DNA of 64,000 bases from Candidatus Jettenia sp. Lineage in GTDB: Bacteria > Planctomycetota > Brocadiia > Brocadiales > Brocadiaceae. Within the stretch, counting starts at the first letter, position 1. Every line of letters begins with the position of its first letter. Shown one piece after another: positions 12,738 to 64,000 of the stretch. The notes under the pieces were generated by a model, which did not search any database, was not told where the DNA came from, and saw only the letters and a program-made list of their open reading frames with translations. Made by a program: the position numbers and the translations under genes. The DNA is taken from positions 2,757,659 through 2,821,658 of the forward strand of contig CP091278.1 in NCBI GenBank assembly GCA_021650895.1. The letters run 5' to 3'.

Positions 12738-14588
12738 TTGTAACGGATGTTCACCCCAGGGAAAATACACAAGTAAAGAAGATAAGGTTGATTAAGAGTA
12801 TTTTGCCAGTAAATATGTAGTCACTAATAATATGGTTATTTACGAATTATATGCTTGAAAATTAAAAGTAATATGGTATATTGTGGTAGTCATGCATATT
12901 GTCGAAAACACCTCAAAATCCGGCAAGAAAATTTATCGTTCTATCCTTTTGCGGGAATCATATCGGGAAGATGGGAAGGTCAAAAAGCGCACGATTGCAA
13001 ACCTATCGAATTGTACTGCCGGGGAGATCGAAGCGATAAAACTTGCCCTTCGCCACAAAGAAGACCTCAGTGCATTGGGAGCATTATCAGAATCGGTAGA
13101 ACTGCAAGAGGGACACTCTGTGGGGGCACTCTGGAGTGTGTACCAGGTGGCAAAGGAATTAGGAATAGAGAAGGCCCTGGGCAATAGCTTTGAAGGGAAG
13201 CTGGCATTATGGCAGGTACTAGCAAGGGTACTCAATCAGGGCTCAAGGTTATCGGCGACAAGACTGGCACAGGTGCATGCCGTAGGTGATGTATTGGATA
13301 TGGGTCGTGGATTTGATGAGAATGATTTGTACGATAATCTGGCATGGGTATCCGAGAATCAGGAACGCATAGAGCGAAAGCTCTTTGAGCTGAGAAGAAG
13401 AGACACCAGGCCCAAGCTGTTTCTCTATGATGTGACGAGCAGGTATTTGGAGGGAGATCAGAACTATTTTGGTCAGTACGGGTATAATCGAGACGGCAAG
13501 AAGGGCAAGAAACAGATCGTCATAGGTCTGTTGTGTGATGAGTCCGGAGAGCCGGTATCAACAGAGGTTTTTACGGGCAATACCCAGGATCAGAAGACCT
13601 TTGAGTCTCAGGTAAAGAAAATGGCAGAGCGGTTTGGGTGCAAGGAGGTAACGATTGTAGGAGACCGGGGAATGATCAAGACGATGCACATCGAACGGTT
13701 ACCGGAAGGATTTCATTACATAACGGCGATAACCAAGCCACAGATAGAAGCGTTGATAAAGAGAGGCATTCTGCAACTGGAGTTATTTGAAGAAAAGCTC
13801 TGCGAGGTAAAGGATGAAGGGACAAGATATATTCTCAGGCGCAATCCCACCAGAGCAAAAGAGATGGCAGAGACCCGCAGAGCAAAATTCCAGAGTATAG
13901 AGAGTTACATCGAGAGGAAGAATGAGTATCTCAGAGAGCATCAAAGGGCATCAGTATCAAAGGCACTGGAGGCAACACAGGAAAGACTCAGGAGGCTGAG
14001 GCTTGAGGGCTGGGTAGGGATAAAAGAAGAAGGCAGGATGTTGAAGCTAGAGAGCAATGAGGGAGCACTTCAGGAGGAATCGTGTCTTGATGGCTGTTAT
14101 GTGATCAAGACAGACTTGAAGGAGACTGAGGCAGATAAGTATCTGGTACATGAGCGGTACAAGGACTTATCAGAAGTGGAGAAGGTGTTTCGGGACTGTA
14201 AGAGAGTGAATCTTGTGTATGTCAGAAAAGAGAAGAGTACGCAAGGCCATGTCTTTATGGTAATGCTTGCACACATGATCCTGCGGAGGCTCCGCACTGC
14301 ATGGGCAGGGTTTGAACTGACCGTACAGGAAGGTCTCCAGCAGTTGGCAACCATTTGCACCATGGAAGTGATCCTGAAAGGCCAACAAGCACGTTGCCAG
14401 AAGATACCACAGCCACGAGAACAATCGAGGAACTTATTAGAGGCGTTGCAGATCAAGTTACCCGCGGTATTGCCAAGGCGAAACATTCGGGTAGTCATCA
14501 GAAAAAAACTTACCAATCGACGAATAAACCAGCAAAACTAAGGCTTTCGCAACATCTTATTTCTCTCTTTGAGGTGAACATCCATTGT
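12738..14588 (+). mobile_element. IS1634-type insertion sequence inside an IS3-family remnant
   Basis: The transposase gene is framed by imperfect ends: TTGTAACGGATGTTCACC at 12738-12755 and its inverted match at 14573-14590 (14 of 18 positions agree). Exact ends are uncertain by a few bases. At the right end the sequence passes straight into an IS3-family integrase-core fragment, so the element apparently jumped into that gene; no left half of the IS3 gene is visible. A 90-bp piece of the same or a sister transposase is found at 35798-35889. Confidence 0.7.
12892..14541 (+). CDS. IS1634-family transposase (DDE type)
   Basis: 549 residues from ATG at 12892; a GTG at 12883 is an in-frame alternative. 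The IS1634/IS4-like layout is visible: an N-terminal part (YREDGKVKKRTIANLS), then LFLYDVTSRYLEGDQN carrying the first acidic residue, TIVGDRGMIKTMHI carrying the second, and near the end VEKVFRDCKRVNLVYVRK with the final Glu of the DDE set in the Y-x3-E-like context. Length is normal, and no frame defect is seen, so the enzyme may be active. Confidence 0.85.
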   Translation: MHIVENTSKSGKKIYRSILLRESYREDGKVKKRTIANLSNCTAGEIEAIKLALRHKEDLSALGALSESVELQEGHSVGALWSVYQVAKELGIEKALGNSFEGKLALWQVLARVLNQGSRLSATRLAQVHAVGDVLDMGRGFDENDLYDNLAWVSENQERIERKLFELRRRDTRPKLFLYDVTSRYLEGDQNYFGQYGYNRDGKKGKKQIVIGLLCDESGEPVSTEVFTGNTQDQKTFESQVKKMAERFGCKEVTIVGDRGMIKTMHIERLPEGFHYITAITKPQIEALIKRGILQLELFEEKLCEVKDEGTRYILRRNPTRAKEMAETRRAKFQSIESYIERKNEYLREHQRASVSKALEATQERLRRLRLEGWVGIKEEGRMLKLESNEGALQEESCLDGCYVIKTDLKETEADKYLVHERYKDLSEVEKVFRDCKRVNLVYVRKEKSTQGHVFMVMLAHMILRRLRTAWAGFELTVQEGLQQLATICTMEVILKGQQARCQKIPQPREQSRNLLEALQIKLPAVLPRRNIRVVIRKKLTNRRINQQN

Positions 14589-26016: not shown

Positions 26017-26070
26017 CAAAAAAGCCTTACTGCAAAGATATTCATGGAAAATATCTTCGGCAGTAAGGCT
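26017..26070 (-). terminator. Intrinsic terminator in the metalloprotease leader
   Basis: On the minus strand AGCCTTACTGC (26070-26060), an inner helix AGATATT/AATATCT, and GCAGTAAGGCT (26033-26023) are followed by TTTTTTG. It lies between the riboswitch and the gene it would control, with no gene ending upstream on that strand. It therefore looks like an attenuator (expression platform). Confidence 0.85.
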
Positions 26071-26126
26071 ATCTTATTTCTGTCGTGTCAGTTATAAGTG
26101 TAAGTGTCTGTTATGTATACTGACAC

Positions 26127-26210
26127 TGTTCACGAACACTGTCCACGGTTACAAGACCCTTTACTTTGCGTCCTCCGATCACTCGGAGTTTACCTTTGTC
26201 GAATATTTAC
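26127..26210 (-). promoter_or_regulatory. Candidate GEMM-I (cyclic di-GMP-I) riboswitch
   Basis: Minus strand shows AAAGGTAAA, helix CTCCGA, a GTGA (GNRA) loop, TCGGAG, then GACGCAAAG and, 4 bases on, GGGTCT. This is the conserved core of GEMM-I: GG-Y-AAA before P2, a GNRA-capped P2, GACGCAAAG after it, and the GGGYCU start of P3. The position equivalent to G20 is G, as in c-di-GMP rather than cGAMP binders. P3 and its tetraloop receptor are not clear by eye, and the 3' side (CAGTGTTCGTGAA) fits the usual end only loosely. A terminator and a secreted metalloprotease follow. Confidence 0.62.
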
Positions 26211-59538: not shown

Positions 59539-60789
<1,251 letters not shown>

Positions 60790-60790
60790 A

Positions 60791-61066
60791 TTATTCTTTC
60801 TCCTTTCTCATTTTTCCCTTTTTCTTTACAAATTTGTGTTTTGTTGTATCTGCACCTCCTTTCTCTCCGTTGAGAAATTGTTTTAGATTTTCTTCTGTTA
60901 TGTGCCATTCAGTACTTAATTTCTGGCCTTTAAGCCTACCTTTATTAAACCAATCTCTAATTGTTCTTTCAGTGGCTCCAAGCGCATCGTGAAGATCTTT
61001 AACTGAATATAATTTTATATCCCCGATTTGTTTAACCATTGCTAAGTCCTTTTTAATATTTGCCAT
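60791..61066 (-). CDS. Small HTH protein, probable excisionase or regulator
   Basis: 91 residues: VKQIGDIKLYSVKDLHDALG, then ATERTIRDWFNKGRLKGQKL and STEWHITEENLKQFLNG. This is the MerR/excisionase-like HTH_17 fold (sequence-specific helix TERTIRDWFNKGRL with a wing). A basic tail, KHKFVKKKGKMRKEKE, follows. One base before int, on the same mRNA, which fits a directionality factor. Confidence 0.8.
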   Translation of the reverse strand: MANIKKDLAMVKQIGDIKLYSVKDLHDALGATERTIRDWFNKGRLKGQKLSTEWHITEENLKQFLNGEKGGADTTKHKFVKKKGKMRKEKE

Positions 61067-61171: not shown

Positions 61172-61492
61172 TTAAGCTTGTAGGTTCGGATAATTTTTTG
61201 TAGTATTTGTTAACTTTTTAATTTTTTCATTTCCTATTTTTTCTAACCATTCATCAACTTTTGATTTTCTGAATCGAGGATATTTGCCAACTTTATAAAA
61301 TGGAATGCTATTTTGATGTATTTTTTCGTATACCCATTGCTTTTTTACCCTTAAATATTCAGATAAATCTTTTACATCAAAGATAGGATCATCTCCGTTA
61401 TGCTTGCTATTATTTGATAGCATCGGCTTGAGAAATTCCACAACCTTTTCTGCTATCAATTGAATTTCTCTCGGTTCAAACTCTGACTTCAT
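61172..61492 (-). CDS. HTH/excisionase-family DNA-binding protein
   Basis: 106 residues. PIFDVKDLSEYLRVKKQWVY, EKIHQNSIPFYKVGKYPRFR and KSKVDEWLEKI are the classic HTH_17 block of excisionase/AlpA proteins. The N-terminal 35 residues are a helix (IQLIAEKVVEFLKPMLSN). It follows rep by 13 bases. It may control int or rep; two HTH proteins of this type in one element suggest one excisionase and one regulator. Confidence 0.82.
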   Translation of the reverse strand: MKSEFEPREIQLIAEKVVEFLKPMLSNNSKHNGDDPIFDVKDLSEYLRVKKQWVYEKIHQNSIPFYKVGKYPRFRKSKVDEWLEKIGNEKIKKLTNTTKNYPNLQA

Positions 61493-61505: not shown

Positions 61506-62675
61506 CTAGTTTAGTGCGTTTTTTTGAGAAATTCCGATAGCTTTTTTATGATTACAAGATTTATCTGAATTTACCTTGTTATACCTTTTCTTTTTCAAAT
61601 TTATCTTGGTTTTTAAATAATCTTCATCATTACGGTATGTATAAGAACCCTTAACTTTCCCCTTAAGATAGCTTATCGCTTCTACAAAATATTTCCTTAC
61701 TATTTCTTCATTGACACTATCGTGTCCTTCTCTTGCCGCATAGGCAGTTAAATAACCAACGCCATTTTGAAATAATGTTTTATCACTAGGGATCCTTGAT
61801 CTATCTACCTCCCTTTTTATACCCATACAAACTCCTTCCATAAAACGTACCTTCTGGATTTCTTCCCATAAGGGGTTTATCTTCCATCGTGTTCTGTTTG
61901 CTGTCTTATCATCAATAGCAAGCCTTAACCAATCATGAGTACAATATCTCCAGACATCATTAATTTTCTCTAAAACATCCGAGAATTTTTTTATAGTCAT
62001 TTGTCCCAAAAATTCCCTTCTAAGTTGAAACTCAACCCTCCATACCCTTTGTTCTTTATCCCAACCCTGCTTTTCCCAAATTTCTTTAAGGTAATATTTA
62101 TGACTCTTTTCTATCTCTATGGTTTTATCATATAACCTTGCAGAAATTTCACCGCCTTGACCTATTGACCAGCCGGTAAATTTATCTCTTTTCCATCGTT
62201 TAAGAGTATCTTCTGCCCTAGTTATCCATTCGCATTTTTCAATCTTTTCCAAATCCATATCCGTTACACAATCAACAAAGAAATCAGCCCTGCTAATTAT
62301 TTCTTCTTCTATTACGATAACTAATTTATTAACTATTTCCCTTAATTTATACATTGCATAATAAGGGCCAACACAGTTTAAGAGTTCACTTGATATTTGA
62401 ACATATATAGGAGGTACTATTTTCCTTTTACTGGCAGAAACCTGGATATGATACCAATTGTCTACTAAAATATATGAATACCACTTATTCCCCTTATCTT
62501 TTATTTCAAAGTCATGTTTTTCAAGGGTCATCATTGCTAATACTTGTTCTTTCTCATTATCAGATTGAGCAAGCTTCTTTTTTTCTTCAAAAAATTCCTT
62601 TAACCCTTCTTTCAATGTACCTTTAAACGATACATACAAGCTATCTATCCCTTTAAAAACCTCTCTAAATTCCAT
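61506..62675 (-). CDS. Replication initiation protein (Rep_trans-like, rolling-circle type)
   Basis: 389 residues from ATG 62675, which has AGGAGG 7 bases upstream. A second in-frame ATG at 62780 with AAGGAGG close by would add 35 residues of low-information sequence over two strong hairpins, so it is rejected, though not excluded. Family features: ISRADFFVDCVTDMDLEKIE, the block ISARLYDKTIEIEKSHKYYL and WRVEFQLRREFLGQMTIKKF, as in the replication initiation factor family of RCR plasmids and ICEs. A nicking Tyr was not assigned. Hairpin-rich DNA just upstream would be its origin. Confidence 0.72.
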   Translation of the reverse strand: MEFREVFKGIDSLYVSFKGTLKEGLKEFFEEKKKLAQSDNEKEQVLAMMTLEKHDFEIKDKGNKWYSYILVDNWYHIQVSASKRKIVPPIYVQISSELLNCVGPYYAMYKLREIVNKLVIVIEEEIISRADFFVDCVTDMDLEKIEKCEWITRAEDTLKRWKRDKFTGWSIGQGGEISARLYDKTIEIEKSHKYYLKEIWEKQGWDKEQRVWRVEFQLRREFLGQMTIKKFSDVLEKINDVWRYCTHDWLRLAIDDKTANRTRWKINPLWEEIQKVRFMEGVCMGIKREVDRSRIPSDKTLFQNGVGYLTAYAAREGHDSVNEEIVRKYFVEAISYLKGKVKGSYTYRNDEDYLKTKINLKKKRYNKVNSDKSCNHKKAIGISQKNALN

Positions 62676-62701
62676 CTTTAATCCTCCTAACATGTAATTG
62701 C

Positions 62702-62731
62702 GGGGTTCTGTGTTACTAGGCACCGAACCCC
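62702..62731. other. Cruciform upstream of rep, candidate nick site
   Basis: GGGGTTC (62702-62708) and GTG pair with CAC and GAACCCC (62725-62731), with one mismatch, around the loop TTACTAGG. Hairpins with the nick in the loop are known for Rep_trans-type origins. Its position, 27 bases before the chosen rep start, fits a double-strand origin. Confidence 0.5.
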
Positions 62732-62745
62732 TATGAGTGCCAATA

Positions 62746-62778
62746 GGCTGCCGGCTAATCATTAAAGCAGCGGCAGCC
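62746..62778. other. Second cruciform upstream of rep
   Basis: GGCTGCCG (62746-62753) pairs with CGGCAGCC (62771-62778); GCT and AGC extend the stem past an AG bulge. It follows the first cruciform by 14 bases. It may be a Rep binding site or part of the same origin. Confidence 0.5.
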
Positions 62779-62819
62779 ATTTTCCTCCTTTTTGCCTTAA
62801 TAGTGGATACCCAATTATG

Positions 62820-62955
62820 TTTTTCAATCCTTGTCCTGCAATCCCAATAAACATTCACTTGCGCCCACATATTCTCATAACAGCGTACTTGCTATTCCTT
62901 CGGGCAGTACGCCCAGAGAATGGCGCAAGCAAATTGGAGGACAAGGATTGAAAAA
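62820..62955. ncRNA. 136-base four-stem hairpin in the rep leader
   Basis: TTTTTCAATCCTTGTCCT (62820-62837) is the exact reverse complement of 62938-62955. Inside, CTTGCGCC pairs with GGCGCAAG, ATTCTC with GAGAAT, and GCGTACTTGC with GCAGTACGC, so nearly the whole length is paired. On the minus strand it would form in the 5' leader of rep. It could be a single-strand origin, an oriT, or a structured regulatory RNA; I do not recognise a named family. The type is set to ncRNA only for its structure. Confidence 0.4.
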
Positions 62956-62997
62956 CGCTTGATGTGTTTCATGAAACAGTATCATAAATTCTCTTTT

Positions 62998-63063
62998 CGT
63001 ATGTAGTACGTGTTTCGCTTCGCTTGCCGCACAGCTCTCGCTCCGCTCAACACGTACCATACG
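62998..63063. other. Hairpin CGTATG-GTACGTGTT
   Basis: CGTATGTAGTACGTGTT (62998-63014) pairs with AACACGTACCATACG (63049-63063), with a two-base bulge. The 34-base interior is GC-rich and repetitive (TCGCTTCGCTTGC, CTCTCGCTCCGC). Part of the candidate origin region. Confidence 0.5.
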
Positions 63064-63339
63064 CTTAACGAATCATTAACAAGGGTCTGTTTTTTAAAAC
63101 TGCTTATATTCATCCCTTAATTTCTATCTTGCCAATATCCTACCCAATAATTACACCATTTCGTATTTGGTTACCTTATCAATGAAATATCATTCTCACT
63201 TTTATATGATGTCCTTACACTTAAAAAGAAATTTGCAAATGAGTCCCATATTTTCCTTCCCTCTTCGCTTCGTACAAAACACTACGCTCTGAGAGAAGGG
63301 TAACGTCTTTTCCTTCAATCAATCTTTTATTTGTCTTCC

Positions 63340-63392
63340 ATCACAGCCTTCTTTAAATTTCTACAAGACAGAAAATTAAAGAAGGCTGTGAT
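63340..63392. terminator. Long hairpin ATCACAGCCTTCTTTAA
   Basis: ATCACAGCCTTCTTTAAATTT (split at the single bulged A) pairs with AAATTAAAGAAGG and CTGTGAT; about 20 pairs around a 12-base loop. No strong T-tract. It may separate a gene right of the window from the rep operon. Confidence 0.45.
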
Positions 63393-63468
63393 CGGTTTAC
63401 TTGCACGTATTCTATTTGCTTAAAGTAGGTATGTTTTCTCCATTTTTTCCGAAAAATTCCAATAAAAA

Positions 63469-63523
63469 AAGCCGATACTATTGTTGTGCTTTTAACCCAA
63501 TCACCCAATAATAATCGGCTTCT
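63469..63523. terminator. Bidirectional terminator-like hairpin
   Basis: AAGCCGAT (63469-63476) pairs with ATCGGCTT (63514-63521), with TATT/AATA inside. Runs of A precede it and CTTTT follows, so it can stop transcripts from both sides. On the minus strand it would end the gene at the right edge. Confidence 0.6.
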
Positions 63524-63900
63524 TTTACCCTATTATATTCTTTAAATTTTATCTATTATGAAATTATCATACCCTATAAATTTTCTCTTTAATTTCCCTT
63601 ATCTATATCTATTTTCATTTATCCTTATCATTTTACCCTATTATCAATTTAATCTTATATCCTATTATTTCATCTTGCTATTTCATTTTATCCTTATTCT
63701 TTTCTCACCCTATATCATCACAATTTAGAAATTTATTTAATTTCACAGTTGGGATCAATAGATTAAAGTACCTCTTACAGTAATATCTGTAAGAGATAAT
63801 CAAATTTTTTAAAGTTCTCTTATATCATAAATCTAACTCCTTTTCTTTTACATCTATGTATCTTTTGCATTTTAAATTTGTACAACTACAGTAGTTTATT

Positions 63901-63999
63901 TTAATCAGCATTTTGGGCACTTGCTTTAACCTTATTAATTAATTGCATAAGCATATTTCCCACATCCCCGGATAGCATTTTGATAGCCTTTGTATTACC
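63901..63999 (-). CDS. C-terminal end of an unidentified gene, cut by window edge
   Basis: On the minus strand the frame reads GNTKAIKMLSGDVGNMLMQL, INKVKASAQNAD and TAA (63903-63901). Only 32 codons are visible. They predict a helix and look coding in style, but no family can be named. The bases after the stop lead to the palindrome at 63772-63795 and the terminator at 63469. Confidence 0.5.
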   Translation of the reverse strand, partial: GNTKAIKMLSGDVGNMLMQLINKVKASAQNAD

Positions 64000-64000
64000 C

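What the first reader, a model, noticed from the sequence alone, without database searches (positions are those of the whole stretch)
62676..63530. Dense array of cruciforms upstream of a Rep_trans-like gene: candidate rolling-circle origin region
Two hairpins just before rep (loop TTACTAGG), a 136-base near-fully paired hairpin, and further hairpins at 62998, 63251, 63340 and 63469 fill a gene-free 850 bp. This is the layout expected of a double-strand origin followed by a single-strand origin or oriT in an integrated element.
Basis: partly seen in the sequence, partly recalled or inferred. Interest (0 to 1): 0.6.

Follow-up and report, generated by a model that had tools for sequence, protein, structure and literature searches.

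The report
Rolling-circle origin of an integrated element
The hairpins sit at the start of a replication gene in a 19-kb DNA element inserted in the chromosome of an anammox bacterium, and one of them is conserved across planctomycetes and proteobacteria as the probable site where the element's own enzyme nicks its DNA to copy (and perhaps transfer) itself.

Summary
The hairpins are real: the 865-nt region folds far better than shuffles (z about -9.8). The gene beside them is a divergent pT181-type (Rep_trans-like) initiator: best fold matches are RepSTK1/RepDE (Z about 12), and RepD's RxD, YxKxxE and RxE residues, including catalytic Tyr188, align with invariant residues, although Pfam PF02486 does not match it. 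The host lineage is anammox (Ca. Brocadiaceae).

The rep-proximal hairpin (62702-62731) is the likely nick site. Its loop CCTAGTAACACA is conserved in nearly all of about 70 homologous loci in Planctomycetota and Proteobacteria. All six stem pairs show compensatory changes (98.7% paired). In 59 genomes its model hits 19 places, all just upstream of this rep.

A second, 138-nt hairpin lies upstream. Its 15 credible hits all precede rep genes, 12 of this family and 3 of a different Rep_trans-like family, so it is probably not read by Rep; a single-strand-origin-like role is inferred. The element lies in tRNA-Met between 71-bp repeats, spans about 19.3 kb, and carries CBASS and type III restriction genes.

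The rolling-circle-origin reading is well supported. The sso or oriT assignments, nicking and excision remain untested.

The parts
59539..59615 (+). tRNA-Met (cat) gene used as the attachment site
   Evidence: ARAGORN, Rfam
59569..59639 (+). left copy of the 71-bp att direct repeat; the right copy lies outside the window at genome 2836518-2836588 (window-equivalent 78860-78930), so the element is about 19.3 kb
   Evidence: exact 71-bp match
59572..60789 (-). tyrosine integrase; its 3' end overlaps the tRNA
   Evidence: PF00589 E 4.6e-25
60791..61066 (-). small HTH protein (excisionase-like)
   Evidence: PF12728; PHROG excisionase
61172..61492 (-). small HTH protein (excisionase/AlpA-like)
   Evidence: PF12728; TIGR01764
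61506..62675 (-). rep: divergent pT181/Rep_trans-type rolling-circle initiator, 389 aa; predicted catalytic Tyr182
   Evidence: fold search; alignment with RepD of pC221
62695..62731 (-). nick-site hairpin (dso core) GGGGTTCGGTGCCTAGT'AACACAGAACCCC plus 3' flank; predicted nick on the minus strand between 62715 and 62714 (inferred from the CT'AA rule of Rep_trans/MOBT)
   Evidence: covariation; model R1; nick rule from PMC9371924
62745..62778 (.). second rep-proximal hairpin, found only in this element
62819..62956 (-). 138-nt nested hairpin with conserved core CTTGCGCC...GGCGCAAG; shared by elements with two different Rep families; candidate single-strand origin
62998..63070 (-). G+C-rich hairpin with GAGCGGAGCGAG-type repeats; a counterpart of the same kind is visible at the same place in the anammox relatives (diverged in sequence)
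   Evidence: by eye; not found by blastn; family-wide structure
63255..63302 (-). hairpin with 73-91% identical counterparts in 11 anammox relatives
63338..63394 (-). 23-bp hairpin with invariant TTTTCTGTnnTGTAGAAA centre; mostly found beside this rep; second copy in the same element at genome 2828977
63466..63526 (-). hairpin followed by a T-run on the rep-sense strand (terminator-like); a similar one lies beside rep2 at genome about 1004970
63901..64000 (-). 82-aa ribbon-helix-helix protein (runs to window-equivalent 64149) on the far side of the origin; weak similarity to relaxosome protein NikA
   Evidence: PF21983 E 1.5e-5, 25.5 bits against a cut-off of 27

Best explanation
The region is the rolling-circle origin of a tRNA-integrated mobile element. 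After Int-mediated excision as a circle (inferred from the att repeats), the pT181-like Rep binds near its own gene start and nicks the rep-sense strand in the loop of the 62702-62731 hairpin, most likely at CCTAGT'AACACA, becoming joined to the 5' end through Tyr182 (inferred by homology with RepD Tyr188). The free 3' end primes leading-strand synthesis through rep, the HTH genes, int and round the circle. The hairpin block upstream (5') of the nick, above all the 138-nt hairpin, is displaced last and most likely serves as a Rep-independent signal for second-strand synthesis (single-strand origin) or for loading host or accessory proteins (inferred). The same nick may double as an oriT if a conjugative helper enters, as in MOBT elements. 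Shown here: hairpins, covariation, exclusive pairing with rep, Rep fold and catalytic residues, integration. Inferred: nicking, excision, replication, role of each upstream hairpin.
For: Structure far beyond shuffles. Nick hairpin: 50 distinct sequences, 98.7% of cells paired, all 6 pairs with two-sided changes, 0/500 shuffles; loop TAGTAACACA nearly invariant; model R1 finds 19 sites in 59 genomes, each just upstream of a rep homologue listed and none elsewhere. Rep: Foldseek top six are 4cij/4cwc/4cwe, VIA Z 11.9-12.4 against 7.3 for the next fold; D11, R129xD131, Y182xKxxE187 and R213xE215 conserved across relatives and RepD, matching the Rep_trans motifs in PMC5714925. The same design occurs in pC221 (AACCGGCTACTCTAATAGCCGGTT inside rep) and in the genome's two other Rep_trans-like genes, each with a hairpin carrying GTAA in the loop at the 5' end of rep. 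The origin-rep-(HTH)-int order recurs in nearly all relatives, with a tRNA at the int end in most loci tested. The 138-nt hairpin precedes reps of two families, at a short distance and on the rep strand.
Against: The nick core is GT'AA rather than the canonical CT'AA in the window and most relatives (CTAA in three: L059, L069, L079). The Rep does not match PF02486. The AlphaFold model is only moderately confident (mean pLDDT 71), and motif II of Rep_trans is not recognisable. No reads or biochemistry were available, so nicking, excision and ssDNA are unobserved. No ssoA-type motif (TAGCGA/TAGCGT) is present, and the upstream hairpins could instead act in the rep mRNA leader.
Confidence: 0.82

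Rival explanations
1. The region is mainly an oriT: Rep is a relaxase of MOBT type, the RHH protein at 63901 is a relaxosome accessory, and the element is a mobilizable element that uses a helper's transfer apparatus; replication is secondary.
For: MOBT relaxases are homologous to Rep_trans and use the same kind of hairpin nick (PMC9371924); the origin is flanked by a NikA-like RHH gene, and larger RHH proteins lie near the origin in five other elements and beside rep2; the tRNA-integrated element has no recognised T4SS genes among the ORFs seen.
Against: No coupling protein (PF02534) anywhere in the host genome, so no resident helper of that kind; the RHH gene is not conserved beside most origins; Rep shows no N-terminal HTH domain such as MOBT relaxases carry; the NikA match is below the curated cut-off.
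Confidence: 0.3
2. The upstream hairpins (138-nt, 63340, 63255) are RNA structures of the rep leader that control rep expression (attenuator or antisense target, as in pT181), not DNA signals.
For: They lie 5' of rep on the sense strand in conserved orientation and order; pT181 controls its rep by leader attenuation (own knowledge).
Against: The 138-nt hairpin also precedes an only distantly related rep; no promoter-like site was found on the rep strand (a weak test). This rival does not touch the nick hairpin, which in proteobacteria lies within the coding sequence.
Confidence: 0.2
3. The 138-nt hairpin is a small non-autonomous transposon (MITE) or other dispersed repeat that happens to sit there.
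For: 24-bp terminal inverted repeats and presence in only some relatives.
Against: 15 of 16 model hits in 33 genomes lie just upstream of a rep, 32-87 nt from the nick hairpin in the 11 cases measured; a free repeat would be scattered; the inner core stays invariant while the outer arms diverge.
Confidence: 0.05

Closest known systems
pT181/pC221 plasmid family (Rep_trans initiators RepC/RepD and their dso)
   Same: Fold, catalytic Tyr and acidic residues, G+C-rich hairpin with the nick sequence on the rep-sense strand at the 5' end of rep
   Different: Chromosomally integrated at tRNA genes; sequence too far for PF02486; loop CCTAGTAACACA (GT'AA) instead of CTCTAATAG; additional hairpin block upstream
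MOBT elements (ICEBs1, Tn916, ICESt3; IME_oriT)
   Same: Integrative element whose Rep_trans-like protein acts at a hairpin nick site; probable rolling-circle replication after excision
   Different: Hosts are Planctomycetota and Proteobacteria, no T4SS or coupling protein found, no N-terminal HTH domain in Rep, nick core differs by one base
Small RCR-type plasmid pTHEBA.01 of Mesotoga prima (1.7 kb)
   Same: Homologous Rep (28% identity over 86%) and a GCACCCG-ATCATAGTAATA-CGGGTGC hairpin in the 5' part of rep
   Different: Free plasmid, no integrase
Rep2 element in the same genome (about 1002290-1006000)
   Same: tRNA-int-HTH-rep-hairpin order and the same 138-nt hairpin
   Different: Only distantly related Rep with its own nick-type hairpin GTTTGCTGGT-ATATGGGTAATC-ACCAGCAAAC

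Membership tests
Rep_trans initiators (PF02486, pT181 type) | Scores above the Pfam gathering threshold | tested here: not met
   No match at E up to 10 for this Rep; relatives L113 and Mesotoga match weakly, E 0.002-0.016
Rep_trans initiators (PF02486, pT181 type) | Rep_trans fold | tested here: met
   4cij/4cwc/4cwe Z 11.9-12.4, 211-216 residues aligned, rmsd 3.6-4.3
Rep_trans initiators (PF02486, pT181 type) | Motifs N' (D), I (RxD), III (YxKxxE), IV ([W/L]xRxE) with catalytic Tyr | tested here: met
   D11, R129/D131, Y182/K184/E187 and R213/E215 aligned with RepD; V stands at the W/L position of motif IV
Rep_trans initiators (PF02486, pT181 type) | Motif II ([T/S]x[Y/E]xG) | tested here: inconclusive
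   The aligned stretch is GWSIG; only the G is kept
Rep_trans initiators (PF02486, pT181 type) | Inverted-repeat bind site (ICRIII) immediately downstream of the nick hairpin | not tested
   Conserved bases follow the hairpin (columns 33-36) but no bind-site repeat was sought
Rep_trans/MOBT nick site | CT'AA in the loop of a G/C-rich hairpin at the origin | tested here: not met
   Hairpin and position met, but the core is GTAA here; CTAA occurs in L059, L069 and L079 only
MOBT relaxases | N-terminal HTH domain before the catalytic domain | tested here: not met
   The predicted model begins with the long strand 3-21; caveat: uncertain start codon (the frame is open to 62870)
MOBT relaxases | Relaxase activity and mobilisation by a T4SS | not testable with these tools
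   No coupling protein PF02534 in the host genome
Integrative element | Integrase plus att direct repeats at a tRNA | tested here: met
   PF00589; 71-bp repeat; tRNA at the int end in most of 30 relatives
Single-strand origin | Hairpin region upstream of the dso on the leading strand, not tied to one Rep | tested here: met
   Position relative to rep and sharing between two Rep families
Single-strand origin | Initiates second-strand synthesis in one orientation | not testable with these tools
   needs an in vivo ssDNA assay
Single-strand origin (ssoA type) | CS-6 motif TAGCGA/TAGCGT | tested here: not met
   Absent on both strands of 62600-63700; motif recalled from own knowledge

The most novel reading that the evidence does not exclude
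The 138-nt hairpin is a portable, Rep-independent second-strand origin (or helper-recognised oriT) that has been exchanged between unrelated rolling-circle elements in anammox planctomycetes, and the elements belong to a so far unrecognised class of tRNA-integrating rolling-circle elements spanning Planctomycetota and Proteobacteria.
Probability: 0.4. Interest if true: 0.65.

Novelty: new variant of a known kind. Interest (0 to 1): 0.5.

Why it matters
Rep_trans/MOBT integrative elements are described almost only from Firmicutes in the papers read here. This family places the same nick-hairpin logic in anammox planctomycetes and in many proteobacteria (Nitrosomonas, Herbaspirillum, Methylovorus and others), here in an element that carries defence genes (CBASS, restriction), with initiators that Pfam does not recognise. 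The near-invariant loop plus covarying stem gives a precise, testable nick site and a search model for such elements, and the shared 138-nt hairpin offers a handle on how they prime their second strand outside Gram-positives.

Tried and rejected
Pfam, PHROG and NCBIfam scans of Rep gave nothing firm; phmmer against PDB sequences gave nothing. Rfam finds no family in the hairpin region. R1 does not find the nick hairpins of Rep2, the small plasmids or the phages, so the loop is family-specific. A clean empty integration site was sought with joined flanks but the right flank is itself an integrase-like remnant and the test was uninformative. Viral contigs gave one relative only, identical at the nick hairpin to Marinobacterium L058, so a viral origin is not supported. 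A similarity of TGCGCCCT in the 138-nt hairpin of the Rep2 element to MOBQ nic sites was considered from memory and dropped: the window and the relatives do not keep it. The second rep-proximal hairpin was dropped from the functional core because no relative has it. Rep3 (genome 1408357, PF02486 E 2e-32) was only glanced at. Literature searches turned up no description of this family.

Full report
Observation. Rfam has no family there.

Setting. The region lies between rep (61506-62675, minus strand, start after AGGAGG) and an 82-aa ribbon-helix-helix gene (63901-64149). Downstream of rep come two small HTH genes and a tyrosine integrase whose 3' end overlaps a tRNA-Met gene. An exact 71-bp direct repeat of the tRNA 3' part and its flank recurs at genome 2836518, giving an element of about 19.3 kb. 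Its cargo includes a CBASS operon (JAB, E1-E2, cyclase, SAVED endonuclease), a WYL protein and a type III restriction system (methyltransferase; the helicase-like 900-aa partner read from the ORF list). The host is a complete 3.82-Mb genome; the closest Rep homologues are in Ca. Brocadiaceae anammox bacteria.

Rep. Sequence searches fail, but AlphaFold with 16 homologues (mean pLDDT 71) matches the solved pT181-type initiators best. In an alignment that includes RepD of pC221, the invariant columns contain the Rep_trans catalytic set: D11, R129xD131, Y182xK184 (with E187 nearly invariant), R213xE215 (motifs as given in PMC5714925). RepD Tyr188 aligns with Tyr182. Relatives are found in a small plasmid (Mesotoga) and, weakly, in small phages.

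Nick hairpin. Upstream of rep homologues from the same order and about 50 from Proteobacteria the same hairpin occurs: a variable, covarying stem (GGTGC/GCACC, GGTAC/GTACC, GGATAC/GTATCC, GGTAGC/GCTACC, GGGTTC/GAACCC here) and a near-invariant loop CCTAGTAACACA. Counting on 50 distinct sequences gives 98.7% paired cells and two-sided changes at all six pairs; no shuffle or slid register comes close. A covariance model from these finds one site in the window and 19 in 59 genomes, every one immediately upstream of a rep homologue. In proteobacteria the hairpin lies inside the 5' coding part of rep (reading ..PPSNT..), as the dso of pC221 does. ICEBs1/ICESt3 and pT181 nick at CT'AA within such a loop (PMC9371924); here the corresponding core is GT'AA, while three relatives have CTAA. 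The two other Rep_trans-like genes of this genome and the Mesotoga plasmid also have a hairpin with GTAA in its loop at the 5' end of rep. The predicted nick on the minus strand is between 62715 and 62714 (inference).

Upstream hairpins. The 138-nt hairpin (62819-62956) has an invariant inner stem CTTGCGCC/GGCGCAAG and a covarying central stem. Its model gives 16 hits in 33 family genomes: 12 beside this rep family, 3 beside a different, only distantly related rep (own genome 1004781, G013, G019), and one weak hit in pilin genes taken as chance. In 11 measured Rep1 cases it lies 97-143 nt from rep, on the same strand. Sharing between two Rep families argues that Rep itself does not read it. 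Its place upstream of the nick on the leading strand is where most RCR plasmids keep the sso (PMC4595007; in ICEBs1, by contrast, sso1 is downstream). The 63340 hairpin has an invariant centre and is mostly next to this rep, with a second copy elsewhere in the element. The 63255 hairpin is 73-91% identical in 11 relatives. Strong folding upstream of the nick hairpin is family-wide: median z -3.0 in 67 loci.

Element family. Origin-rep-(HTH)-int on one strand recurs in nearly all loci, with a tRNA (Met, Pro, Arg, Thr, Lys, Asn, Phe) at the int end in most of 30 loci tested.

Transfer. The RHH gene by the origin resembles NikA below threshold; larger RHH genes lie there in five relatives and beside rep2, but this is not general. 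The host has no coupling protein of family PF02534. Mobilisation therefore remains open.

Conclusion. A rolling-circle origin with a well-defined nick hairpin is strongly supported by comparison; the sso role of the 138-nt hairpin and an oriT function are inferences. By Pfam score, nick core and (for MOBT) domain make-up this is not a plain member of PF02486 or MOBT, but it works like them: a divergent variant in Gram-negative hosts.

Noticed in passing
genome 1002290-1006000 (L036): A second tRNA-side int-HTH-rep element with a different, distantly related Rep, its own GTAA-loop hairpin and the same 138-nt hairpin.
   Followed up: yes
genome 1408357-1408938 (L124): A third Rep_trans gene (PF02486 E 2e-32) with ACCCCCGT-ATGGTAAC-ACGGGGGT at its 5' end, much like the ICEBs1/Tn916 type of nick hairpin (the latter recalled from memory).
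   Followed up: partly
L034 6473-11474 (window-equivalent 64814-69815): CBASS operon with JAB, E1-E2, CD-NTase and SAVED-endonuclease genes as cargo, plus type III restriction genes and a WYL regulator.
   Followed up: partly
genome 2836589 onwards (beyond the right att copy): Sequence resembling the integrase 3' end follows the right att copy: probably the remnant of another element in tandem.
   Followed up: partly
L041, L044, L045, L047, L054, L055 (0.3-0.8 kb upstream of rep): A conserved gene of about 331-354 aa (NSWKEKIDPAFD...) borders the origin in several Brocadiaceae elements; function unknown.
   Followed up: no
genome 2828977-2829032 (L034 about 12978-13033): Second copy of the 63340 hairpin in the same element, upstream of the type III methyltransferase gene.
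   Followed up: partly
window 26056-26204: c-di-GMP-I riboswitch on the minus strand.
   Followed up: no
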